Positions 13,922 through 29,026 of a DNA stretch of 64,000 nucleotides are shown here, piece after piece (the first letter of the stretch is position 1; every line of letters begins with the position of its first letter). This DNA is from an uncultured delta proteobacterium. Lineage in GTDB: Bacteria > Desulfobacterota > Syntrophia > Syntrophales > Smithellaceae. The position numbers and the translations under genes are program-made. The DNA is taken from the NCBI GenBank assembly GCA_903907985.1, contig CAIVQG010000039.1, positions 1-64,000 of the forward strand, written 5' to 3'. The notes below the pieces were generated by a model. The model saw only the letters and a list, made by a program, of their open reading frames with translations. It did no database searches and was not told where the DNA came from.

Positions 13922-15784
13922 ATGTGGAAGGATAAAGTCGTTTCTCCGCAGGAAGTTCTCTCAAAGATCGAACCGGGCATGACCATTTTCCTCGGTACGG
14001 GAATGGCGGAACCGCGAACGCTGGTTAAACATCTCATGGCTTCGGAAGAAAACAACCTGCGGGATTTGGAATTAATTCAACTGGTGAGTCTCGGGGATAC
14101 GATACCCATTGATGAAAGATATTCGTGGAAATTCCGGCTGAGGACATTTTTTTCCGGCTGGATTGCTTCGGAGGCCATCAGCGCAGGTAGAGTCGATCTT
14201 ATTCCCAGCAGATTTTCCAAAATACCCGAACTGTTCAAATCGGGAGCCATCCATATTGATGCGACCTTCATTCAGATTTCACCCCCGGATGAAAACGGTT
14301 ACGCCTGCCTGCTTGGTGTGGATGTGGAACGGCAGGTAATGGAAACAGCCCAACTGGTTGTAGGCGAGATTAATGAACACGCTCCCCGCATTATGGGCGA
14401 CACTCTTGTTCACGTGGACGAATTCAATTATTTTGTTGAATCAACAGAGCTTCCGCTTTACATTCCCCGGTGGCCGGTGGCGGATGTTTTTCTGAAAATC
14501 GCCGCGAATATAGCGGCTGTGGTTCAAGACGGAAGTTGCATCTCTCTCGGCATAGGACCTCTCTACGAAGCTCTGGCCGTGCAGCTGGCTACCAAAAAGA
14601 ATCTGGGCATCCATTCGCCTTTTTTCACCGATTCCCTGATGGACCTTGTAAAGAGCGGCGCCGTCACAAACAGGTATAAAAGTGTTTTTCGCGGCAAATG
14701 CTCCGCTTCTTATCTGATGGGTACCGAAAAATTAATGCACTGGCTAGATCGCAATCCGCTTGTCGACTTTCAACCGGAAGACGTTATTACTGATCCGAAG
14801 GTAATCGGCAGCAACGACCGGATGATGGCCATTCTTCCGGCAAGAAAAATTGACTTAACGGGAAATGTCGCACTGCACACCGGCAAAGGCAATATTACCG
14901 CAGGCCCGGGAAATGTGCAGGAGCTTTTTATGGGTGCAGCGCTTTCGAAAAAAGGCCGGACTATCTTTGGCCTTCCCAGCCGTAACATCAAAGGCATGCC
15001 CAATATTGTCCTCTCTGTTGATAATATGCCTTTTCAGTTTACCAATCGAGAATCCATGGATTTGGTCGCCACTGAATACGGAGTGGCATATCTTATGGGA
15101 AAATCAATGCGGGAACGTGCGCAGGAGCTAATTGACATCGCACACCCCGCTGACAGGGAAGAACTGGTCAGACAGGCCAAAGAAGCAAAACTGCTTTACG
15201 CCGACCAGATTTATTTCCCCGAATCGGGACACCTTTACCCATCAAAGGTAAGCTGTTCCCATGAATTCAAAGACGGCCTGAAGGTTAATTTCCGACCGAT
15301 AAAACCTTCTGATGAAGATAAGATGCGCGACCTGTTCTATCGCTTTTCGGATCAGGCCGTTTATTCCCGCTACTTTACTTCCATAAAAACAATGCCCCAT
15401 AAAAAGATGCAGGAATATGTTAACGTAAATTACCGTTGGGTGATGTCTATTGTAGGCGTCGTCGAGGTTTCTGCCGGCACTGAAAAAATCATTGCCGAGG
15501 CGCGTTATGCCCGGATGAAACAGGATACCTTTGCCGACACGGCATTCATTGTTGATGAAGCTTATCAGGGCAAGGGTATCGCTTCGTATCTTTTTGAATT
15601 ATTAATCCGCACGGCCCGCGAGGAGTGTATCGGGGGCTTCACCGCCGACGTACTGGCGACCAATAAATCAATGCTGAAAGTGTTTGAAAAAGCGCCCTTC
15701 CCCGTTCAGACTGTCCTTTCCCGGGGCGTCTATGAATTAACCATACCCTTCACTCCTTTGTCGGAGTTACCGGCAAAAGATTAA
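13922..15784 (+). CDS. Acetyl-CoA hydrolase/transferase-family protein fused to a GNAT acetyltransferase domain
   Basis: Residues 1 to about 430 form a family I CoA-transferase/acetyl-CoA hydrolase fold ('PGMTIFLGTGMAEPRTLVKHL', 'CISLGIGPLYEALAVQLA', 'ATEYGVAYLMGKSMRERAQELI'). Residues from about 455 to 620 form a GNAT domain with an acetyl-CoA loop 'VDEAYQGKGIASYLFELL'. The combination is recurrent in deltaproteobacteria. The first domain probably moves CoA between carboxylic acids, relevant to an organism living on acyl-CoA chemistry. The GNAT half might acetylate a protein lysine and couple CoA status to regulation (inference). The upstream tandem repeat suggests it has its own promoter. 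Confidence 0.88.
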   Translation: MWKDKVVSPQEVLSKIEPGMTIFLGTGMAEPRTLVKHLMASEENNLRDLELIQLVSLGDTIPIDERYSWKFRLRTFFSGWIASEAISAGRVDLIPSRFSKIPELFKSGAIHIDATFIQISPPDENGYACLLGVDVERQVMETAQLVVGEINEHAPRIMGDTLVHVDEFNYFVESTELPLYIPRWPVADVFLKIAANIAAVVQDGSCISLGIGPLYEALAVQLATKKNLGIHSPFFTDSLMDLVKSGAVTNRYKSVFRGKCSASYLMGTEKLMHWLDRNPLVDFQPEDVITDPKVIGSNDRMMAILPARKIDLTGNVALHTGKGNITAGPGNVQELFMGAALSKKGRTIFGLPSRNIKGMPNIVLSVDNMPFQFTNRESMDLVATEYGVAYLMGKSMRERAQELIDIAHPADREELVRQAKEAKLLYADQIYFPESGHLYPSKVSCSHEFKDGLKVNFRPIKPSDEDKMRDLFYRFSDQAVYSRYFTSIKTMPHKKMQEYVNVNYRWVMSIVGVVEVSAGTEKIIAEARYARMKQDTFADTAFIVDEAYQGKGIASYLFELLIRTAREECIGGFTADVLATNKSMLKVFEKAPFPVQTVLSRGVYELTIPFTPLSELPAKD

Positions 15785-15946: not shown

Positions 15947-17497
15947 GTGCTGATGAAATCTAAAAGAGGTATAGTATGCTGCGGCGCTCTACTGATGACG
16001 GCATTGCTGTTTGGCAGTCCTTCTACGATCTGGGCTGTGGAAGGCGGTAAAGAGCAGAACAAAGCGGCGGTCAAAATGACTCTGGCCGATGCTGTCATCA
16101 TTGCCCTGAATAATAACGTTTCCCTGAAGAGTGCCTACCTCGACCGCATTCTTCAGCAGTTTGATCTGCGGAAAGCGGAAAATAAATTCTTTCCGGAGCA
16201 GTCAGTGAAGCTGACTGCTGGCCGCACATCAAACTACAGCTCTCCGGACGAAAGAACCAATGCCGTTAACACTGGTGGCGACTACACGGCAACACTGACG
16301 ATTCCTACCGGAGGCAATTTTAATTTTACCTGGAACAATGCAGGAAACAGTCCCGATACCAATCAGGCATTTGCCTACACTTCAGCCTGGTCACTCACCT
16401 TCACGCAGCCGTTGCTTAGGGGTGGCGGCATCGACAACGCCACCTACTCCGTCAAGGTCGCCCGGATTACGGAGGAGCAGAATATCCTGTCGATGAGGGA
16501 CACGATATCATCGACGATCAAAACGGCTATTACAGCCTACAGAACATACTTGAGCGCCAACCGCCAGTTGGAGATAAGCAGACAATCGCTTTTGGAGGCG
16601 AAGAGGACTTATGAAACAAACGAAGCCCTCATCACAGCAGGACGGAAAGCAAGAACGGAACTGGTTGAAACGGAAGCCAACGTCGCCAATCAGGAATTAG
16701 CCGCCACCACGGCACAGAATTCGCTGGAATCCGCCCGCCTCTCCCTGGTTCAGGCCATAAATGTTGAGAAAAATACACTGTTTGAGCTGGTCGAGGAAAA
16801 CGATTATCAGGTTAAGCCTCCTTCCCTTCCGGAAGCTATCGGGATCGCCAAAAAAAACCGAACAGACTATCTTAAGGCATTGCAAAATATGGAGATAAAA
16901 AAATGGGATCTTTCCAATGCCAAGTGGAACCGGATGTGGTCTCTCGACCTTGTGGCCGGCACAACTGACAGTGAGTCAACCACTGCGTTAGACAAATACG
17001 GCGATTCTTTGCGCCGGGCGACAAGCAGCGGCGCCCAGAGGAACTGGACTGCCGGATTAACCTTGACGGTACCCTTCAGCCTGTTGACCCCCGAGCGGCG
17101 CGCCTATATCAGCGCCCAAAACGAATTAGAGAAGGCCAAAATGAACCTGCAAAAGATGGAGGTTGATCTGGAAATAGCCGTGCAAAGTGCTGTCCGGGAC
17201 GTGGAGACAAACTACCGGCAAATGGGACTGGCCAAACGGGCACGTTCACTTTCGGAGCAGAAACTGGAAGTGGAAAATGAAAAGCTCAAGGTCGGACGCA
17301 CAACCAACTTTCAAATCGTCAGCTATCAAAACGATCTCAATAATGCCAAGACCAGCGAGCTCAACGCCGTAATTGCCTATCACAATTCCCTGACGTCTCT
17401 GGATGAAACGCTCGGCACAACACTGGCAACCTGGAAGATTGAAGTTAAAAAGGAAGATGACAAAGTCAAGCTGCCGCAAGCCGCAGTCAAACCTTAA
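15947..17497 (+). CDS. TolC-family outer-membrane efflux protein
   Basis: The outer-membrane channel of a tripartite exporter. A signal peptide (hydrophobic 'CCGALLMTALLFG', probable cleavage after 'TIWA') precedes duplicated OEP repeats rich in coiled-coil helix, with 'LTFTQPLLRGGG' and 'PFSLLTPERRAYISAQNELEKA' typical of TolC proteins. It has 516 residues from a GTG start; GGAGGA lies 14 bases upstream. An in-frame ATG two codons later is possible but further from the ribosome site. It heads the run adaptor-ATPase-permease with short gaps, so it is the exit duct for that exporter. Confidence 0.92.
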   Translation: MLMKSKRGIVCCGALLMTALLFGSPSTIWAVEGGKEQNKAAVKMTLADAVIIALNNNVSLKSAYLDRILQQFDLRKAENKFFPEQSVKLTAGRTSNYSSPDERTNAVNTGGDYTATLTIPTGGNFNFTWNNAGNSPDTNQAFAYTSAWSLTFTQPLLRGGGIDNATYSVKVARITEEQNILSMRDTISSTIKTAITAYRTYLSANRQLEISRQSLLEAKRTYETNEALITAGRKARTELVETEANVANQELAATTAQNSLESARLSLVQAINVEKNTLFELVEENDYQVKPPSLPEAIGIAKKNRTDYLKALQNMEIKKWDLSNAKWNRMWSLDLVAGTTDSESTTALDKYGDSLRRATSSGAQRNWTAGLTLTVPFSLLTPERRAYISAQNELEKAKMNLQKMEVDLEIAVQSAVRDVETNYRQMGLAKRARSLSEQKLEVENEKLKVGRTTNFQIVSYQNDLNNAKTSELNAVIAYHNSLTSLDETLGTTLATWKIEVKKEDDKVKLPQAAVKP

Positions 17498-17524: not shown

Positions 17525-19303
17525 ATGAAAAACGACGAACTGATCTACCAGAATATCCTGGCAAATATGAGCGACGGGGTTATGACCATTGGTCTTGACG
17601 GCAGGATCATAACCTTTAATGAAGCCGCCGAAGAGATCCTGCAGATGAAAGCCCCGGAAGTCATCGGCAAACCTTTCGGAGAGATATTCCTCATCCTCGA
17701 GGGTTACGATGATTTTAACCAGATCATCCTGGACGCTGTATATGAGTCGGCAACCATCCAGAACGGCGTCGTTTCTATTCAAGCTGAAGATACTACTCGC
17801 ACTCTCACCCTGACAACCTCCTTTCTCAAGGCGGAGCGAGACGGCAAAAAGGAGAAAGTTGCCGTTATTGCAGTTTTCAGTGACATGACGGAGCTCGAAC
17901 GCATGCGCTCCGCCGAGATCCAGCTCACGGGCCAGATCAAGGAAAAGCACAAGGAACTTCAGGATTCGTATCTAAAGCTGGAAGATTCAACTAAGAACCT
18001 GGAGGTGGCGCTAAAGAAAGTCCAAATTGTTCGGATCGCCGCCACGGCTTTCGTCATAGTCCTTTTTCTTTCCATCGGTTTATTCTCCTGGGTTAGAACA
18101 ACTTCTACTGCTCACAAAACGGAAGGAAGCCAGGTGGAAAAGCCGGCGAAGGGAGCAGCGCAGAATTTTTATGCGGTAGCTCCCCAGCCCCTGTCGGACA
18201 GCATCTCGCTTAAAGGCTCATTAAGGCCGATTCAAGTCGTCAATATCCCCATCCCTTTTACCGGCAACGTGCAGGAAATGTTTTTTGAGTATGGCCAGCC
18301 GGTAGCAAAAGGACAAATTTTGCTAAAACTGGACAGGACGGAGGCGGAAACAAAACACCGTGAGGCGAAGTCCGCTTTTATCAAGGCGCATGAAAAGTTC
18401 CGGGAAGTTACAAAATGGGAGACAAGCGATGAGGTAATAAAGGTCGGACGTTCGCTGGCCAAGGCGAAAATGAGTCTCGATACCCAGAAAAGGACACTGA
18501 CGGAAACTGAGTATCTGTATAAGAAGGGCATCGTACCGGCAACAGAATACGAAAATGCCAAACAGCAGTACATCAACGCGCAGCTTGATTATGAGTCAGC
18601 CGAACAGGAACTCAAAACAGCCATGGCCAAAGGACGGGGAGACAATTTCACTGTCATCCGCCTGGAGATGGAAAACGCAAAATCAAAACTGGCCGAAATG
18701 GAGAGGCAACTGAGCCGGGCGGATATTTTCGCTCCTGTATCAGGGACCGTAGTCATGCCGGACACAGCGGATAAGGACAAGAGCTCCAAAATGGTCTCCA
18801 AAGGCGCGTCATTCACTCAGGGAGAAATCCTGCTGGCCGTTGCTGATACCGAAGGATTTACAGTCCGGATGGATGTGGATGAGATAGAGGTATTAAAGAT
18901 AAAGCGGGATCAGGGGGCAATTATTACGGGCGAAGCCTTTCCGGGGGTGGAACTCAAAGGCAGGGTCTCCCATGTGTCCGCACAGGCAGCCTCAGCGGAA
19001 GGCAAGCCGGAATCCCCTACATTTAAAGTGGCTGTAGCTATTGATAAAGTAGTTCCGGAAGTAAAGGAAAAGATTCGTCTCGGCATGTCGGCCAGCATTG
19101 TTATCCAGGTATTGCAGAAACCCCAGGCGCTTCTGGTTCCCATCACAGCAGTCACTATGGAAGGTGCCGGTCGATTTGTAACCATAAGGGACAAGACTTC
19201 TAAGGACTTAAAAAAGATTAAGGTGGAGACGGGTATCACAACTGCGAATGCCGTGGAGATACTCAAAGGTCTTAGTGCCGGTGATGAGGTGCTCGTACCT
19301 TGA
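17525..19303 (+). CDS. PAS domain-containing periplasmic adaptor (HlyD/MacA-type membrane fusion protein)
   Basis: The N-terminal part (about residues 1-125) is a PAS domain ('ILANMSDGVMTIGLDGRIIT' start; 'VIAVFSDMTELERMR' end), as in sensor kinases. A coiled coil of about 40 residues follows, then one transmembrane helix at about 169-190. After it comes a MacA-like adaptor: biotinyl-lipoyl halves ('FTGNVQEMFFEYGQPVAKGQ' and 'SRADIFAPVSGTVVMPD'), a helical hairpin at roughly 280-385 and a beta-barrel. Adaptors normally have only a short N-terminal anchor; placing a cytoplasmic sensor directly on the adaptor is unusual. With TolC, the ATPase and the FtsX/MacB permease alongside, the PAS part may gate export or assembly in response to a ligand or redox state (inference). 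Confidence 0.9.
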   Translation: MKNDELIYQNILANMSDGVMTIGLDGRIITFNEAAEEILQMKAPEVIGKPFGEIFLILEGYDDFNQIILDAVYESATIQNGVVSIQAEDTTRTLTLTTSFLKAERDGKKEKVAVIAVFSDMTELERMRSAEIQLTGQIKEKHKELQDSYLKLEDSTKNLEVALKKVQIVRIAATAFVIVLFLSIGLFSWVRTTSTAHKTEGSQVEKPAKGAAQNFYAVAPQPLSDSISLKGSLRPIQVVNIPIPFTGNVQEMFFEYGQPVAKGQILLKLDRTEAETKHREAKSAFIKAHEKFREVTKWETSDEVIKVGRSLAKAKMSLDTQKRTLTETEYLYKKGIVPATEYENAKQQYINAQLDYESAEQELKTAMAKGRGDNFTVIRLEMENAKSKLAEMERQLSRADIFAPVSGTVVMPDTADKDKSSKMVSKGASFTQGEILLAVADTEGFTVRMDVDEIEVLKIKRDQGAIITGEAFPGVELKGRVSHVSAQAASAEGKPESPTFKVAVAIDKVVPEVKEKIRLGMSASIVIQVLQKPQALLVPITAVTMEGAGRFVTIRDKTSKDLKKIKVETGITTANAVEILKGLSAGDEVLVP

Positions 19304-19369: not shown

Positions 19370-20041
19370 ATGCCATTGCTGGTTTTTGAAGACATATGGA
19401 AGAGCTATCAAGTTGGTCCCACAGTACTGGATGTGCTCAAAGGGATATCCATCACTGTCGAAAAGGGAGAACTGCTGGCTATTGTGGGTCCGTCCGGTTG
19501 CGGCAAATCCACGTTAATGAATATTATCGGCCTTCTCGATAAGCCGAGTTCCGGCAGCTATCATATCGAGGGAGAGAAGATTGGTTATGATGACGACCGG
19601 ATTCTATCCTCGATTCGCAACAAAAATATCGGTTTTGTCTTTCAGCAATACTATCTGCTGCCGCGATTGAACGCTCTGGATAACGTCGGCCTGCCGCTGG
19701 CCTATCGTAATGTACCCAAGACAGAAATTGCCGACAGATCTATGGAATATCTAAAGAGAGTGGAGATGCAGGACAGGGCGTATCACAAGCCGGATGAAAT
19801 GTCCGGAGGACAGCAGCAGAGAGTTGCCATAGCCCGCGCCCTGGTAGGCAAACCTACGCTGATCCTGGCCGATGAGCCCACGGGCGCCCTGGACAGCTCC
19901 ACCGGCCAGGACATCATGAACCTCTTTACGAAAATCAACGAGGAAGAAGGGGTCACAGTCATTATCATCACTCATGATCTAAAGATCGCCGCGCAGTGCC
20001 GCCGCAGTCTCAAAATGATAGACGGTAGAATTTGTGAATAA
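19370..20041 (+). CDS. ABC transporter ATP-binding protein (MacB/LolD type)
   Basis: A 223-residue ATPase with Walker A '[10 protein letters not shown]', Q-loop '[17 protein letters not shown]', signature '[16 protein letters not shown]', Walker B '[12 protein letters not shown]' and the switch histidine in 'IIITHDL'. This subfamily powers FtsX-fold permeases that push substrates or lipoproteins through the periplasm without a classic transmembrane channel. It sits 66 bases after the PAS-adaptor gene and 19 bases before its permease. Confidence 0.93.
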
Positions 20042-20060: not shown

Positions 20061-21242
20061 ATGATTCTCGGCGCAAACCTCAAAGAGGCTCTTACCAGTC
20101 TGACCACGGCCAAACAGCGTACCATTCTCGCTTTGATCGGGATAGTGATCGGCATTGGCTCCGTGATCGGCATGATATCTATTGGTGCTATCGTGCAGAA
20201 CGAGGCTCTCAAGCAGTTCAAGGAGATGGGCATAGATATCATAACCGTTCGGCAAGATAGCGGAAATACCGGAAAGGGGGGTAGTTTCCGTCTGGACACC
20301 ATCAGGGAACTTCCCTTGCATGTCAAAGATGTTAAAGAAGTTGCTCCGTATATCAATTCCTCGGTAAGCTATGGTCAAGGCAGAAAGACGGAAGGGATTG
20401 AGATGATGGGGGTTACTGAAACCTTCTTCCGGATAAACAAACTGCGCATCAAAGAAGGGCGGCAAATAACCGACCTGGACGAAAACCGTTACTTTTGTGT
20501 CATCGGAAACGGGGCAGCGAATATACTCCGCAAATTCGGTATTGCGCAACCGATGGGAAGCCAGGTTGCCCTGGGGCAGCGGATATATACCGTAATAGGA
20601 GTCATTGATAAGGTGCCGGAAGGCGGTGGCATGCGACCATATGGGCTCAATAATGCTGCGATAATCCATATTTCTACGGCTAAAAGGACTTTTCAATCGC
20701 CGGATATCAACGTGTTTCTGGCACGGGTTGGCACCGAGCAAAAATCAGCTCAACTCAAGCAGTCAATAGGCGACTATTTTACTTTTAAAGCGAGGGGCCT
20801 GCGCGTAAACGTACAAACAGCCGAAGAATTGATCGAGAAGATGCAGGCACAGATGCGTCTGTTTACTTTGCTCCTGGGTGCTATCGGCAGCATCGCCCTC
20901 ATTGTCGGCGGCATCGGCGTTATGAACGTGATGCTCATCTCCGTGACCGAAAGAAGAAAGGAAATCGGCATCCGCCGGGCTTTGGGCGCGCAGCAGTCTG
21001 ACATTCAGAGTCAGTTTATTATTGAGTCCGTAATGCTCTGCCTGGTGGGCGGCCTGATCGGTATTATCCTCGGCACCTTTGTATCCTATCTCTTCGCCTA
21101 CTTTACCAAGTGGGAATTCGTTGTTTCCTATATGGCCATTATTCTCGGTTTTGGAGTGGCCACAGCGGTAGGCGTCTTCTTTGGTTATTACCCTGCCCGC
21201 ACTGCATCCCGGATGGACCCGATAAAGGCCTTGAGGTCTTAA
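20061..21242 (+). CDS. ABC transporter permease, FtsX/MacB family
   Basis: The 393-residue protein has the MacB layout: one N-terminal transmembrane helix ('ILALIGIVIGIGSVIGMISIG'), a periplasmic MacB_PCD domain of about 220 residues, and three C-terminal helices starting 'LLLGAIGSIALIVGGIGVMN' with the 'ERRKEIGIRRALGAQQSDI' coupling segment. Unlike E. coli MacB, the ATPase is a separate gene immediately upstream. Together with TolC and the PAS-adaptor it completes a tripartite exporter. The substrate is unknown. Confidence 0.93.
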   Translation: MILGANLKEALTSLTTAKQRTILALIGIVIGIGSVIGMISIGAIVQNEALKQFKEMGIDIITVRQDSGNTGKGGSFRLDTIRELPLHVKDVKEVAPYINSSVSYGQGRKTEGIEMMGVTETFFRINKLRIKEGRQITDLDENRYFCVIGNGAANILRKFGIAQPMGSQVALGQRIYTVIGVIDKVPEGGGMRPYGLNNAAIIHISTAKRTFQSPDINVFLARVGTEQKSAQLKQSIGDYFTFKARGLRVNVQTAEELIEKMQAQMRLFTLLLGAIGSIALIVGGIGVMNVMLISVTERRKEIGIRRALGAQQSDIQSQFIIESVMLCLVGGLIGIILGTFVSYLFAYFTKWEFVVSYMAIILGFGVATAVGVFFGYYPARTASRMDPIKALRS

Positions 21243-21293: not shown

Positions 21294-21322
21294 TTGACAT
21301 ACCAGACTATTCTGCTTATACT
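21294..21322 (+). promoter_or_regulatory. Sigma-70 promoter of the STAS/RsbW-like pair
   Basis: TTGACA (21294-21299), 17-base spacer, TATACT (21317-21322). The predicted transcription start near 21329 lies downstream of a TTG at 21325, which supports the ATG at 21361 as the translation start and indicates that the signalling pair can be expressed independently of the exporter. Confidence 0.75.
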
Positions 21323-21360
21323 CCTTGCAAAATTTAATCAGGAAGTGTTGGGTAACATTT

Positions 21361-21687
21361 ATGGAAATTCAGACAGCGAAAGAAAAGAATACGGTTGTTG
21401 TTTCCGTCAAAGGCAAAATTGATGCCGTTACAGCCCCGGAATTTGAAAAGGTACTGGGGAAACTGATTGCCGATGGCGAGAACACTTTTCTCCTCAACTT
21501 CAGCGGACTGGAATACATCAGCAGTGCTGGTCTGCGCAGTATTCTGTCTACGGCGAAACAGTTGAAGCCGAAAAGCGGAAGAATCCTTTTTTCCGGTCTT
21601 CAGGGTCCCGTTAAAGATGTGTTTAAGATATCCGGATTCGGCACCATCTTTAAAATCTTTGAAACCCGGGAAGATGCATTGAAGTAA
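21361..21687 (+). CDS. STAS-domain anti-sigma factor antagonist (RsbV/SpoIIAA-like)
   Basis: A 108-residue single STAS domain: 'NTVVVSVKGKIDAVTAPEFE', 'FLLNFSGLEYISSAGLRSIL' with the phosphorylatable serine in the SSAG loop, and 'FSGLQGPVKDVFKISGF'. Such proteins bind an RsbW-type kinase when dephosphorylated. The kinase gene follows after 9 bases. The start was set to ATG 21361 because the longer frame would begin before the predicted transcription start. Confidence 0.9.
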   Translation: MEIQTAKEKNTVVVSVKGKIDAVTAPEFEKVLGKLIADGENTFLLNFSGLEYISSAGLRSILSTAKQLKPKSGRILFSGLQGPVKDVFKISGFGTIFKIFETREDALK

Positions 21688-21696
21688 GTCAAATTT

Positions 21697-22140
21697 ATGG
21701 CCATACCCTCAACCATCACGTTGCCGGGGACATTAGACTCCCTCTATCCTTTCATGGATTTCGTTACTTCCTTTTCCCGGGAACAGGGATTCGGAAGTGA
21801 GAAAATCGGCGAGATAGAGCTGGCCTTGGAGGAAGTTCTCGTCAACATCATCAAACATGCCTATAAGGAATGTGATATTGAGGGCAATATCAAGATCACT
21901 TGTACACAAGACGATAAGCATAGCCTGGTCCTCGAGATCGCCGACTGGGGAACACCCTTCAATATATTCTCCGCCCGTGAACCGGACATATCTCTGGACA
22001 TTGACGAACGCCAAATCGGGGGACTGGGGATCTTTTTTGTTAAAAAGCTGATGGATGAGGTCCGGTACCGACTTGAGGACGATCAAAACAAATTAACACT
22101 AGTTATCCATAATACTCATTTATCTTCCGACAAGAGATAA
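21697..22140 (+). CDS. RsbW-like serine kinase / anti-sigma factor (GHKL ATPase)
   Basis: A 147-residue HATPase: N-box 'ELALEEVLVNIIKHAY', G1 box 'IADWGTPFN', and 'RQIGGLGIFFVKKLMDEVRY' forming the ATP lid. It should phosphorylate the adjacent STAS protein and bind a target such as a sigma factor or enzyme. No sigma factor of the SigB/SigF type is adjacent, so the output is unknown. A PP2C-type SpoIIE phosphatase, the expected third partner, is encoded about 5.5 kb downstream on the other strand. Confidence 0.88.
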   Translation: MAIPSTITLPGTLDSLYPFMDFVTSFSREQGFGSEKIGEIELALEEVLVNIIKHAYKECDIEGNIKITCTQDDKHSLVLEIADWGTPFNIFSAREPDISLDIDERQIGGLGIFFVKKLMDEVRYRLEDDQNKLTLVIHNTHLSSDKR

Positions 22141-25934: not shown

Positions 25935-27644
25935 TTAATGATCGAAGTGAAAAATAACTTTACATCGACCGTCTTTCTCTTCCGACTCAATCCGGTCCAC
26001 ATACTGTCTGATGATCCGGGAAGAAAGATTGGTCAGGGCATTATCATCGTCCAACAGGGCGTCTCCCTCCAGAAAGGTTTCGGCAAATTCGACGGGTGTA
26101 CCCTCGTAACGGATCGTAATATCCAGATTGAATTCATCAAAGAAGACTTCCGCCGCAATTTTACCCCGGGCCAATTCCAGGTTTGTCGCCATTTCGAAGA
26201 ATTCATTGAGCGCCATCTTGGCCTGCTGGATGACATCTCCGCGTGCCCCCCAGGTTGCTCCCTGGTTCTCCATGAAATGGAATATTTTGTTTGAGGAATC
26301 AACACCGGGCGTAAGCTCCAGAACTTCCCGACGGGCAATACCGATGCGAAAGACCAAATTCAGAATGATAGCGAGCATTGTCGTTACAGTAAGGGAAGAT
26401 TGGAAAAATGGTTCCAGCCAGGGATGAAGATTGCGGTAAAGATTCGGAAATATGTCCGCACTGATCCCGAACATGAGCGATATGCCGATGACAAAGGTCT
26501 TCCGGATATCAATCATGCGGGAAGTCATGATCTGAATGCCGGAGATCAACATAAAGCTTACCATAAAAACAAGCGCACCCCCCATGACCGGCCGGGGCAT
26601 AATACTGAAGACCGCGGACATCATGGGAAGAAAAGCCAGCGCGATGAACATTCCGCCGGTAACCAAGGAGATGATGCGGCTTGTCGTTCCCGTGGCGGCA
26701 CTTAAGCCTACACTGCCCGCATAGAGTGACTGTCTCATCCCTCCCAGCAGGCCGCCGGCAACAGACCCCAGCCCGTCGGCCAACGTCCCTCGCTGGATAT
26801 TATCCAGGTCGGCTCTCTTCCATTCCGCATCGTTGATCCTCTGGCACATGGTGAGCGCCGCTACTGCTTTCAAGACGGTGGCCAGTGTTGCGGCAATAAA
26901 GGGCACCACAAGAATCGGACTGAACGACCATCCGATATAGGAAAGATCGGGAAAGGAAAGCAGAGGGGATTCGATAATCAATTCCAAATCAGAAAACTTC
27001 AGCACACCTACCAAATATGCAGCAATGTAACCCGCGGCCATACCGATAATAACTGAATAAAAGCGCAGTTTCCCCTTGCTCCAAACATTTGTTCCCACCA
27101 TACCCGCCAGGGTAACAACAGCAACGAAAATGTTGGCCGGGAGAACCTTACTTTCCGTTCCCGTTATACCAAAGAAATTGCTGATCATGACGGGAACGAT
27201 ATTCAGGCCAACCATGGTGAGAACCACACCCGTCACTTCCGGGGGAAACAGTATCCTCATCCGGTTGATAACTCTGGATATGAGGATCTCCAGGACACCG
27301 GAAAAGATGGACATTCCGAGAATCAGGGAAATACCGCCCGTCATACCAGCCAGAATGGAACAGGAAACAAAAGTAGGATCAATACCCGCCGTACAGAGAT
27401 AACCGCTCCCCACGGGGCCTTTATTCAGGGCCTGCATGATGGTGGCAATACCCCCGGCAATCATGGACATGCACACGACACTTTGAACAAGTTCGGGCGG
27501 ACAGCCGATCGCCCTCGTAACCATAGCGGCTACGATCAGCCCGGCGGTGAGAAAGAAAACGTGCTGGATGGCCAGGGCAATGATGATCCGGAGTGGTGGC
27601 TTATCATCCACTCCATAGACTAGATTGGCAGGTTTCTGCGGCAT
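25935..27644 (-). CDS. NCS2-family (uracil/xanthine) permease with a C-terminal cytoplasmic domain
   Basis: A 569-residue protein. Residues 1 to about 440 form a 14-helix NCS2 transporter ('HVFFLTAGLIVAAMVTRAIG', 'YLCTAGIDPTFVSCSI', 'GLLGGMRQSLYAGSVGLSAATG'), which usually imports nucleobases with protons. The remaining 130 residues are soluble, include 'EVFFDEFNLDITIRYEG' and end 'CKVIFHFDH'. I recall this tail in other bacterial NCS2 proteins and it has a faint resemblance to RsbW-like ATPases, but the nucleotide-binding boxes are not clear. It is 17 bases downstream of the SpoIIE phosphatase gene, in one operon, which suggests a regulated transporter. Confidence 0.85.
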   Translation of the reverse strand: MPQKPANLVYGVDDKPPLRIIIALAIQHVFFLTAGLIVAAMVTRAIGCPPELVQSVVCMSMIAGGIATIMQALNKGPVGSGYLCTAGIDPTFVSCSILAGMTGGISLILGMSIFSGVLEILISRVINRMRILFPPEVTGVVLTMVGLNIVPVMISNFFGITGTESKVLPANIFVAVVTLAGMVGTNVWSKGKLRFYSVIIGMAAGYIAAYLVGVLKFSDLELIIESPLLSFPDLSYIGWSFSPILVVPFIAATLATVLKAVAALTMCQRINDAEWKRADLDNIQRGTLADGLGSVAGGLLGGMRQSLYAGSVGLSAATGTTSRIISLVTGGMFIALAFLPMMSAVFSIMPRPVMGGALVFMVSFMLISGIQIMTSRMIDIRKTFVIGISLMFGISADIFPNLYRNLHPWLEPFFQSSLTVTTMLAIILNLVFRIGIARREVLELTPGVDSSNKIFHFMENQGATWGARGDVIQQAKMALNEFFEMATNLELARGKIAAEVFFDEFNLDITIRYEGTPVEFAETFLEGDALLDDDNALTNLSSRIIRQYVDRIESEEKDGRCKVIFHFDH

Positions 27645-27661
27645 AGCGGCCTTTACCTTTT

Positions 27662-29026
27662 TTATTCCTGCTTGATTCCCTTGTACTGCAAAGCCAGGAT
27701 TGTTATGTCATCCGACTGAGGGGCACCGGCAGCATGGCCGTGGACATCCGCCAGAATTTTTTTCAGCAGCGCGTCGGGGTGCTGCCCATTGACTTCCCGC
27801 AGTGATGTGAGGAGTCGTTCCTCGGAGAAAAGCTCTTCATTTTTGTTCATTGCCTCGGTAACACCATCCGAGTAAATTATGATGGTGTCGCCTACCCCGA
27901 GAGTAAATGTTTCCTTAACATAGGGACTGTCCTCAAATGAAGCAATGGGCAGGGAACCCTGCGTTTCCAGATACTCCGGATTTACTGCCCGGCGGCATAA
28001 AACAGGTGGATTATGGCCGGCATTGCTGTATTCCACCTTGCCGGTCCGGGTATCAATGATGCCGCAGAAAACGGTGGCAAACATCGACATGTCATTTCCT
28101 TCGCAGAGTTCATTATTTACTTTGAAGAGAACTTGGTCAATGCTGGTATCTTCATCGGCCACCGCTTTGAGAAGTGTCTTGGTAACAGCCATAAAGAGCG
28201 ATGCGGGAATTCCCTTCCCGGAAACATCTCCCAGCAAAAAGACTAAATGATGACGGTCCACAAAGAAGAAGTCGTAAAAGTCCCCGCCCACCTCTTTCGC
28301 CGGTTCCAGTACAGCGGACAGCTCAAATTCCGGCCTTTCGGGAAACGGGGGAAACATCTTGGGGACCATACTCATCTGGATTTCCCGGGCCGCATTGAGT
28401 TCCCCTTCAATGGTGTGCTTTTCCTGTTCCCAGGAACGCTGTTTAACCAGATTGACAACGATGGATGTGTAGATGGCCATGCCAATTGCATTGGCCAAAA
28501 TCATGGGCAAGGTTAACACTTTGACAATTTCCAGCGATTGTTCAAAGGGGCGAGCAATCAGCAGTGTTAATCCCGAGTGGAGTATCTGGTTGACAACCGC
28601 CACGACAACAGCGCCGGTCACACCGATAAATTCTCCTTTCCTCCACTTGAAAACCAGCCCGCCAACAAGTCCGGAGACAATAGTGGCGACGGAACAGGAT
28701 ACCTCGGTAAAGCCGCCCATAGAATACCGGTGAATTGCGCCGATCAATCCGGCGCCGAGGCCGGCTATGGGACCACCAAAGAGGCCCGCTAGGGCGGGAC
28801 CAAGATCCCTCGTATTGGCAAAGGCGCCCATAAACTTGAAGCCGCTCAATGTCCCATAGATGGATAAGAGACCGAAAACCAGGATAATCAGAAACGTGCC
28901 CTTCCAGGTAAACTTTTTCTGTAGTAACTCGTCGTAGAACCGGCTCCGGGACAAAATATAGGCAATTACGGACATGACGGCCATGCTGTTGATCAGCGTC
29001 ACGACCAGTTCCATTATCTCCTTCAT
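27662..29026 (-). CDS. Membrane PP2C-type phosphatase (5TM-LytS-like sensor + SpoIIE/RsbU domain)
   Basis: 454 residues. The first 200 are a multi-helix membrane domain with 'GPIAGLGAGLIGAIHRYSMGG', the 5TMR_LYT type. Residues from about 225 form a SpoIIE phosphatase with metal-binding aspartates in 'EVGGDFYDFFFVDRH', 'LLGDVSGKGIPASLFMA', 'IIYSDGVTEAMNK' and the ending 'PQSDDITILAL'. Such enzymes dephosphorylate STAS antagonists in partner-switching pathways. It is the first gene of an operon with the NCS2 permease and has a strong promoter of its own. The STAS/RsbW-like pair at 21361-22140 is a plausible but unproven partner. Confidence 0.9.
   Translation of the reverse strand: MKEIMELVVTLINSMAVMSVIAYILSRSRFYDELLQKKFTWKGTFLIILVFGLLSIYGTLSGFKFMGAFANTRDLGPALAGLFGGPIAGLGAGLIGAIHRYSMGGFTEVSCSVATIVSGLVGGLVFKWRKGEFIGVTGAVVVAVVNQILHSGLTLLIARPFEQSLEIVKVLTLPMILANAIGMAIYTSIVVNLVKQRSWEQEKHTIEGELNAAREIQMSMVPKMFPPFPERPEFELSAVLEPAKEVGGDFYDFFFVDRHHLVFLLGDVSGKGIPASLFMAVTKTLLKAVADEDTSIDQVLFKVNNELCEGNDMSMFATVFCGIIDTRTGKVEYSNAGHNPPVLCRRAVNPEYLETQGSLPIASFEDSPYVKETFTLGVGDTIIIYSDGVTEAMNKNEELFSEERLLTSLREVNGQHPDALLKKILADVHGHAAGAPQSDDITILALQYKGIKQE

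What the first reader, a model, noticed from the sequence alone, without database searches (positions are those of the whole stretch)
17525..19303. PAS sensor domain fused through a membrane helix to an efflux adaptor
Seen: PAS domain (about 1-125), coiled coil, one membrane helix (about 169-190), then a MacA-like periplasmic adaptor, in an operon with TolC, ABC ATPase and MacB-type permease. Known: adaptors normally have no cytoplasmic sensor. Inference: ligand or redox binding inside the cell may gate pump assembly or transport directly, without transcription, giving a one-protein sensor-actuator for export.
Basis: partly seen in the sequence, partly recalled or inferred. Interest (0 to 1): 0.65.

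Follow-up and report, generated by a model that had tools for sequence, protein, structure and literature searches.

The report
Export pump with built-in cytoplasmic sensor
A bacterial export pump carries a small-molecule sensor domain fused, through a coiled coil and a membrane helix, to the part that joins the pump to its outer-membrane exit, so the cell can probably switch export directly; the fusion is real, recurs in relatives, and comes with the sensor kept, swapped or lost.

Summary
Window 17525-19303 (+) is one 592-aa frame: PAS, coiled coil, one membrane helix, MacA-type adaptor, between a TolC homologue and a split MacB (ATPase, permease). It is no assembly artefact: 24 adaptors, window included, align as the full fusion, and the PAS part is under purifying selection. 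On a tree of the adaptor part alone, one relative carries GAF instead of PAS and two carry no sensor; all lie inside the PAS clade, so the sensor was probably swapped once and lost once. From the PAS Asp-x-Thr/Ser motif to the membrane helix there are exactly 50 residues in 20 of 20 rows of one clade and 43 in 4 of 4 of the other: one heptad, as in signalling coiled coils. Published work on MacA and DevB (passages of a review) shows that the adaptor's cytoplasmic end controls the pump. Best reading: a cytoplasmic cue sets ATPase stimulation or assembly directly. Ligand and direction are unknown. Beyond the finding: an unnamed Cys-rich secreted family, arrayed beside four of these operons, co-occurs with the adaptor across genomes (6 of 7 positive genomes fall among 13 adaptor genomes of 151, builder genomes left out): a candidate substrate. 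New variant of a known kind.

The parts
15947..17497 (+). TolC-family outer-membrane exit duct, 516 aa
   Evidence: Pfam OEP 1.1e-37
17525..19303 (+). PAS-coiled coil-membrane helix-periplasmic adaptor fusion, 592 aa
   Evidence: single frame; Pfam and NCBIfam; relatives
17570..17893 (+). PAS domain, residues 16-123
   Evidence: PAS_9 6e-9; profile of 17 family PAS regions matches PAS of WalK/VicK in the PDB, best 2.4e-7
17891..18025 (+). heptad linker between PAS and membrane helix, residues 123-167
   Evidence: hydrophobic periodicity 3.5, permutation p 0.0045; spacing 50 or 43 residues; predicted continuous helix 123-193, pLDDT 68-89 for residues 131-190
18026..18094 (+). single membrane helix, residues about 168-190
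   Evidence: hydropathy
18167..19300 (+). periplasmic adaptor (beta-barrel, lipoyl, hairpin), residues 215-592
   Evidence: HlyD_D23, HlyD_3, RND_mfp; nearest solved chains MacA
19370..20041 (+). ABC ATPase, MacB/LolD type, 223 aa
   Evidence: ABC_tran 3.8e-35; Walker A, signature and Walker B strings present
20061..21242 (+). MacB-type permease (MacB_PCD + FtsX), 393 aa
   Evidence: MacB_PCD 1.4e-33, FtsX 1.5e-24
21294..21322 (+). promoter-like site TTGACA-17-TATACT before the STAS gene
   Evidence: 11 of 12 consensus bases, best in the region; consensus match only
21361..21687 (+). STAS, anti-anti-sigma type (listed ORF starts at 21325; relatives align from the ATG at 21361)
   Evidence: STAS 1e-20; ant_ant_sig over cut-off; start by alignment
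21697..22140 (+). HATPase_c_2, RsbW-like kinase type, 147 aa
   Evidence: HATPase_c_2 2.7e-29; one of 5 over the cut-off in the genome
25432..25824 (+). small signal-peptide, Cys-containing protein, 130 aa; weak candidate for an exported protein
   Evidence: heuristic signal peptide; no Pfam or NCBIfam match; a possible relative near the operon of G484. 3.3 kb from the operon, so only a lead

Best explanation
It is a MacAB-TolC-type tripartite exporter whose adaptor carries its own cytoplasmic sensor. SHOWN by sequence: PAS, heptad linker, one membrane helix and MacA-type adaptor in one chain, encoded with TolC, ATPase and permease; the fusion is inherited, under selection, and the sensor module is exchangeable. 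INFERRED: PAS domains pair in the cytoplasm beside the ATPase; binding of a small ligand (or a redox change) shifts the PAS exit strand and D-x-T/S motif, turns or re-registers the coiled coil, and moves the adaptor's membrane helix, which in MacA is needed to stimulate the MacB ATPase. The cue would thus set how strongly the adaptor stimulates ATP hydrolysis or locks the TolC-docked state, without new transcription. INFERRED, weaker: the cargo is small, disulfide-rich proteins sent to the periplasm by Sec and pushed out through TolC, as MacAB-TolC does with enterotoxin STII.
For: Fusion in 24 of 27 family rows, one GAF, two without sensor. TolC-adaptor-ATPase-permease on one strand in 25 of 26 fetched loci plus the window; the exception, L110, starts inside the adaptor. 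D-x-T in 21 of 24 and D-x-S in 3 of 24 PAS rows; motif-to-membrane spacing 50 in 20 of 20 and 43 in 4 of 4; linker hydrophobic period 3.5, p 0.0045. dN/dS of the PAS part 0.075-0.287 in the 7 of 8 pairs where dS could be computed. GAF row nested beside a PAS row with support 100/97; sensor-free pair nested at 95/93. Literature: without its cytoplasmic region or membrane helix MacA loses stimulation of MacB ATPase, SpMacA likewise, and DevB N-terminal deletion stops export without losing binding (passages of PMC5985334); the HlyD cytosolic helix is critical for secretion but not assembly (passage of PMC8953716); seven-residue dependence of linker length in a LOV kinase (passage of PMC6798134).
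Against: No ligand, no bench data. PAS model confidence is low (pLDDT about 40), so no pocket could be read. Two relatives work, or at least persist, without a sensor. PAS could serve only for pairing. STAS and HATPase genes are near only 7 of 27 operons, window included, and in the window have their own promoter-like site. The cargo evidence is by association, and the window itself has no small secreted ORF within 3 kb.
Confidence: 0.6

Rival explanations
1. PAS is a structural pairing or assembly module: it helps six adaptors assemble around the ATPase and senses nothing.
For: PAS domains often dimerise (general knowledge); six MacA per pump is known from the review passages; the linker is a likely coiled coil.
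Against: GAF, another ligand-binding module, takes the same place in L050, and two rows dispense with it while keeping linker and helix. Six PAS-fold positions are invariant in 17 rows, including D120 of the exit motif.
Confidence: 0.2
2. Signal runs inward: the adaptor reports pump occupancy to the cytoplasm, and PAS with the neighbouring STAS/HATPase pair passes this to gene regulation.
For: STAS+HATPase within the fetched stretch in 7 of 27 loci (window); SpoIIE-type phosphatase genes near in the window and L108 and L046; sigma-54 activator-like genes near several operons.
Against: The pair is absent from 20 of 27 stretches, some of them short; in L046 it lies on the other strand; nothing links it physically to PAS.
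Confidence: 0.12
3. PAS is a passive passenger from a gene fusion, or the fusion is an assembly or start-site artefact.
For: Sensor-free relatives exist.
Against: 24 fusion rows across many genera, PAS under purifying selection, conserved spacing.
Confidence: 0.04

Closest known systems
MacA of MacAB-TolC (E. coli; S. pneumoniae homologue)
   Same: Single N-terminal membrane helix, adaptor domains, MacB-type ATPase/permease and TolC partner; the cytoplasmic end matters for ATPase stimulation (PMC5985334 passages). Nearest solved chains by sequence are MacA.
   Different: MacA has no folded cytoplasmic sensor; here ATPase and permease are separate genes; NCBIfam MacA equivalog score 58.6 against a cut-off of 342.
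DevBCA-HgdD of Anabaena
   Same: Split MacB-type exporter whose adaptor's N-terminus controls export (PMC5985334 passage).
   Different: No PAS known to me (recalled); DevB model 43.6 bits against a cut-off of 129.
Aat system (AatPABCD) of E. coli
   Same: Split MacB-type ATPase and permease, TolC homologue and adaptor that export a small Sec-exported protein from the periplasm (PMC7943197 passages).
   Different: Has the acyltransferase AatD and a lipidated cargo; no sensor on the adaptor reported in the passages read.
HlyD of type 1 secretion
   Same: Cytosolic N-terminal segment needed for secretion though not for assembly (PMC8953716 passage).
   Different: A short amphipathic helix, not a ligand-binding domain; different ABC type.
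WalK/VicK-type cytoplasmic PAS with coiled coil
   Same: Closest solved PAS domains by profile and by a low-confidence fold search.
   Different: There the output is a histidine kinase; here a pump adaptor on the other side of the membrane.

Membership tests
PAS domain | profile match over the curated cut-off | tested here: met
   PAS_9 36.6 bits against 27, PAS 30.5 against 22.6; also L065 and L066. The other 21 rows only by alignment.
PAS domain | bound ligand or cofactor | not testable with these tools
   no pocket model of usable confidence
Periplasmic adaptor (membrane fusion protein) | HlyD_D23 / RND_mfp match | tested here: met
   44.3 bits against 30; 133.8 against 94.9
MacA equivalog (NF008606) | curated full-length score | tested here: not met
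   58.6 bits against 342
MacAB-TolC-like tripartite ABC exporter | MacB-type ATPase and MacB_PCD+FtsX permease with adaptor and TolC in one operon | tested here: met
   ATPase and permease are separate genes
MacAB-TolC-like tripartite ABC exporter | assembled pump and measured export | not testable with these tools
   bench work
Signalling coiled-coil linker | heptad periodicity and length steps of seven | tested here: met
S-helix (Anantharaman type) | central 'ERT' signature | tested here: not met
   absent by eye from the 22 linkers printed; signature from passages of PMC1592074
RsbV/RsbW-like partner switch | STAS plus HATPase_c_2 plus SpoIIE phosphatase nearby | tested here: met
   21361-22140 and 27662-29026 (-); that these three work together is inference

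The most novel reading that the evidence does not exclude
A sensor-gated secretion system for families of small disulfide-rich proteins: a cytoplasmic PAS (or GAF) module reads a metabolite or redox state and, through a heptad lever across the membrane, licenses a MacB-type pump to expel Sec-delivered Cys-rich proteins, of a family with no Pfam, NCBIfam or PDB match in the members tested.
Probability: 0.35. Interest if true: 0.78.

Novelty: new variant of a known kind. Interest (0 to 1): 0.62.

Why it matters
How the cytoplasmic end and membrane helix of a MacA-type adaptor control the MacB ATPase is an open question; the review read here says the structural basis is unclear because that helix was not resolved (passage of PMC5985334). 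Here evolution has put a sensor on exactly that end and kept the linker in steps of seven, with PAS, GAF and sensor-free versions of one adaptor. That gives a ready series of natural variants and a clean test (linker insertions of one to seven residues). If true, export can be switched by a metabolite within one protein. It may also point to an unstudied family of exported Cys-rich proteins.

Tried and rejected
Rejected: frameshift or two-gene artefact. Rejected: 'every related pump has STAS/HATPase'; it is 7 of 27. Rejected: S-helix membership, no ERT signature. The AlphaFold models are poor over PAS (3 and 2 sequences in the alignments; mean pLDDT 60.1 and 54.7), so the fold search (PAS domains such as WalK, FixL and BvgS at the top, one hit under E 0.001) is weak support only. 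Plasmids hold no fusion: 0 of 494 matching records cover 80% of the query, and 0 of 620 with the GAF version. The scan of genome contigs with one protein found 3 loci, one of them (L003, 22%) not used further.

Papers: the searches for PAS with MacA, MacB or HlyD terms and GAF with HlyD showed no paper on such a fusion among the listings; I saw listings and abstract starts only, and most subscription papers are not held.

Small secreted ORFs: the signal-peptide filter is home-made. The enrichment near operons (27 in 113.6 kb against 11 in 156.1 kb) was tested after I had seen the pattern, arrays and related genomes make the counts dependent, and the window contributes none; exploratory. The filter missed some ORFs (for example L047 4465-4887, seen but not). 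L068 and L110 enter with a cut N-terminus.

Full report
What is there. The frame at 17525-19303 (+) encodes 592 residues. Residues 16-123 match PAS_9, 240-488 HlyD_D23 and 401-512 HlyD_3, all over Pfam's cut-offs; NCBIfam gives sensory_box and RND_mfp over cut-off. The membrane helix is at about 168-190. TolC lies 27 bases upstream, ABC ATPase and MacB_PCD/FtsX permease follow at 66 and 19 bases. A STAS gene and an RsbW-like HATPase come next, behind a promoter-like site that matches 11 of 12 consensus bases, so this pair may be its own unit in the window.

Is it more than chance? A relative in L001 matches residues 1-587 at 56%. Of 99 relatives searched, 10 (window's genome included) hold the near-full-length protein and one more (G076) matches from residue 128 on. 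In the whole order as held, 17 of 155 genomes have the adaptor family at E 1e-50; in an even draw from the phylum, 11 of 395 at E 1e-60. Only a few top candidates per genome were scored in these searches. The three other genomes of the window's genus lack it, so the distribution is patchy. In 25 of 26 fetched loci TolC, adaptor, ATPase and permease lie on one strand; L110 is cut by the contig end. In close pairs the PAS part has dN/dS 0.075-0.287 in 7 of 8 pairs (dS not computable in one), much like the adaptor part, 0.066-0.149.

Sensor swap and loss. L050 (G076) has GAF (8.6e-13) where PAS would be, on the same linker, helix and adaptor. L002 and L063 start just before the linker and have no sensor. 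On a tree of the adaptor core alone (residues from 171, 30 rows with three plasmid-borne outgroup rows), GAF L050 is sister to PAS row L062 (100/97), and the sensor-free pair is nested among PAS rows (95/93), so PAS is the likely older state. The three outgroup rows have long branches, and the root was drawn at the midpoint. The window's row lies nearest rows from another family of the phylum, but with weak support (86/82), and the genome is rated 4.5% contaminated, so I make no claim of gene transfer.

Linker. From the Asp of the PAS exit motif to the conserved Arg at the membrane helix there are 50 residues in 20 of 20 PAS rows of the main clade and 43 in 4 of 4 of the second. The motif is D-x-T in 21 of 24 and D-x-S in 3 of 24. 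Hydrophobic positions in the linker repeat with period 3.5 (permutation p 0.0045). Both AlphaFold models draw one unbroken helix from residue 123 to 193 or 194, with fair confidence for the linker and helix in the second and poor confidence for PAS in both. Length steps of seven and a continuous helix are what signalling coiled coils show; in a LOV histidine kinase activity depends on linker length modulo seven (passage of PMC6798134). The two length classes are two clades, so this is one change of length, not many.

How it most likely works. In MacAB the adaptor stimulates the MacB ATPase, and loss of the adaptor's cytoplasmic region or membrane helix abolishes this; the same holds for the S. 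pneumoniae pair, and deletion of the N-terminus of DevB stops export without loss of binding (passages of PMC5985334). The sensor here sits on just that part. I infer that a ligand or redox state in the cytoplasm acts through PAS, coiled coil and helix on ATPase stimulation or on docking. Shown: anatomy, inheritance, selection, modularity, heptad spacing. Inferred: ligand, direction and effect. Nearest solved PAS domains by profile are those of WalK and VicK, which does not fix a ligand.

A candidate cargo. Next to several operons lie small ORFs with likely signal peptides and many cysteines. Seventeen of them align as one family with seven invariant Cys (A1); the two members tested had no Pfam match at E 0.1, four members had none in NCBIfam except one chance-level hit (0.026), and the A1 profile had only chance-level PDB hits. 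In the four genomes from which A1 was built, 17 of 18 copies lie within about 5 kb of the operon (G053 8 of 8, G072 2 of 2, G078 6 of 7, G081 1 of 1). These four are in one subclade of the adaptor tree. Elsewhere the copies lie on other contigs. Yet they keep company with the adaptor: in the order 10 of 11 A1-positive genomes are among the 17 adaptor genomes of 155; without the four builder genomes 6 of 7 among 13 of 151, hypergeometric p 7.7e-7; in the phylum draw 5 of 6 among 11 of 395, p 3.5e-8, the window's genome shared by both. These p-values treat genomes as independent, which related genomes are not. The exceptions are G028 and G476, and G476's hit is weak (2.9e-4, stops inside). MacAB-TolC is known to export enterotoxin STII, which reaches the periplasm by Sec and needs two disulfides (passage of PMC5985334), and the Aat system exports a small Sec-delivered protein (passages of PMC7943197). 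A DsbC-like gene lies in the L046 locus. So Sec-delivered Cys-rich proteins are a fair guess for the cargo, not shown. Other small secreted proteins near operons are of other kinds: chagasin-type inhibitors (Pfam for L060; L061 and L046 judged by likeness only), a protein of KKPGPGDLN-type repeats upstream of the GAF operon, and beta-type Cys proteins in L001, L002, L062 and L047.

Partner switch. STAS and HATPase genes lie in the same stretch as the operon in the window, L001, L046, L060, L061, L062 and L108 (7 of 27; stretches differ in length). The window also has a 5TMR-LYT/SpoIIE phosphatase gene at 27662-29026 (-), as has L108, and L046 a Cache-HAMP-SpoIIE gene. The window genome has only five HATPase_c_2 matches over the cut-off. 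This could be a second input to the same pump or plain neighbourhood.

Novelty. Searches of the held papers for PAS with MacA, MacB or HlyD and GAF with HlyD listed nothing on such a fusion. The parts are all known; their union is, to my knowledge, not described. I call it a new variant of a known kind.

Noticed in passing
L043 2035-7037 (+); L041 2069-4889 (+); L042 43-1029 (+); L048 5384-5764 (-); window genome G000 C72 70921-71235 (L086 9910-10254, -): Family of small Cys-rich secreted proteins, up to eight in tandem just upstream of the TolC gene; seven invariant Cys; no known family found.
   Followed up: yes
L050 5614-5967 (+): Signal-peptide protein made largely of a nine-residue KKPGPGDLN-type repeat, just upstream of the GAF-adaptor operon.
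   Followed up: no
L060 10930-11340, L061 6298-6717, L046 149-562: Chagasin-type (I42) protease inhibitor genes right after the permease; Pfam match shown for L060 only, the other two by likeness.
   Followed up: partly
L041 13198-14682 (+): HATPase_c_2 fused to a GNAT-like domain, after an MFS gene downstream of the pump; in the window the gene upstream of the pump (13922-15784) is acetyl-CoA hydrolase fused to GNAT.
   Followed up: no
window 25935-29026 (-): Xanthine/uracil-type permease with a C-terminal extension that looks HATPase-like by eye (no Pfam match there), next to a 5TMR-LYT/SpoIIE phosphatase; same pair in L108 1148-4250.
   Followed up: partly
L095 4673-10877 (+), L094 1617-2117 (+): Secreted pentapeptide-repeat-like proteins among small secreted Cys proteins in G429 and G394.
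   Followed up: no
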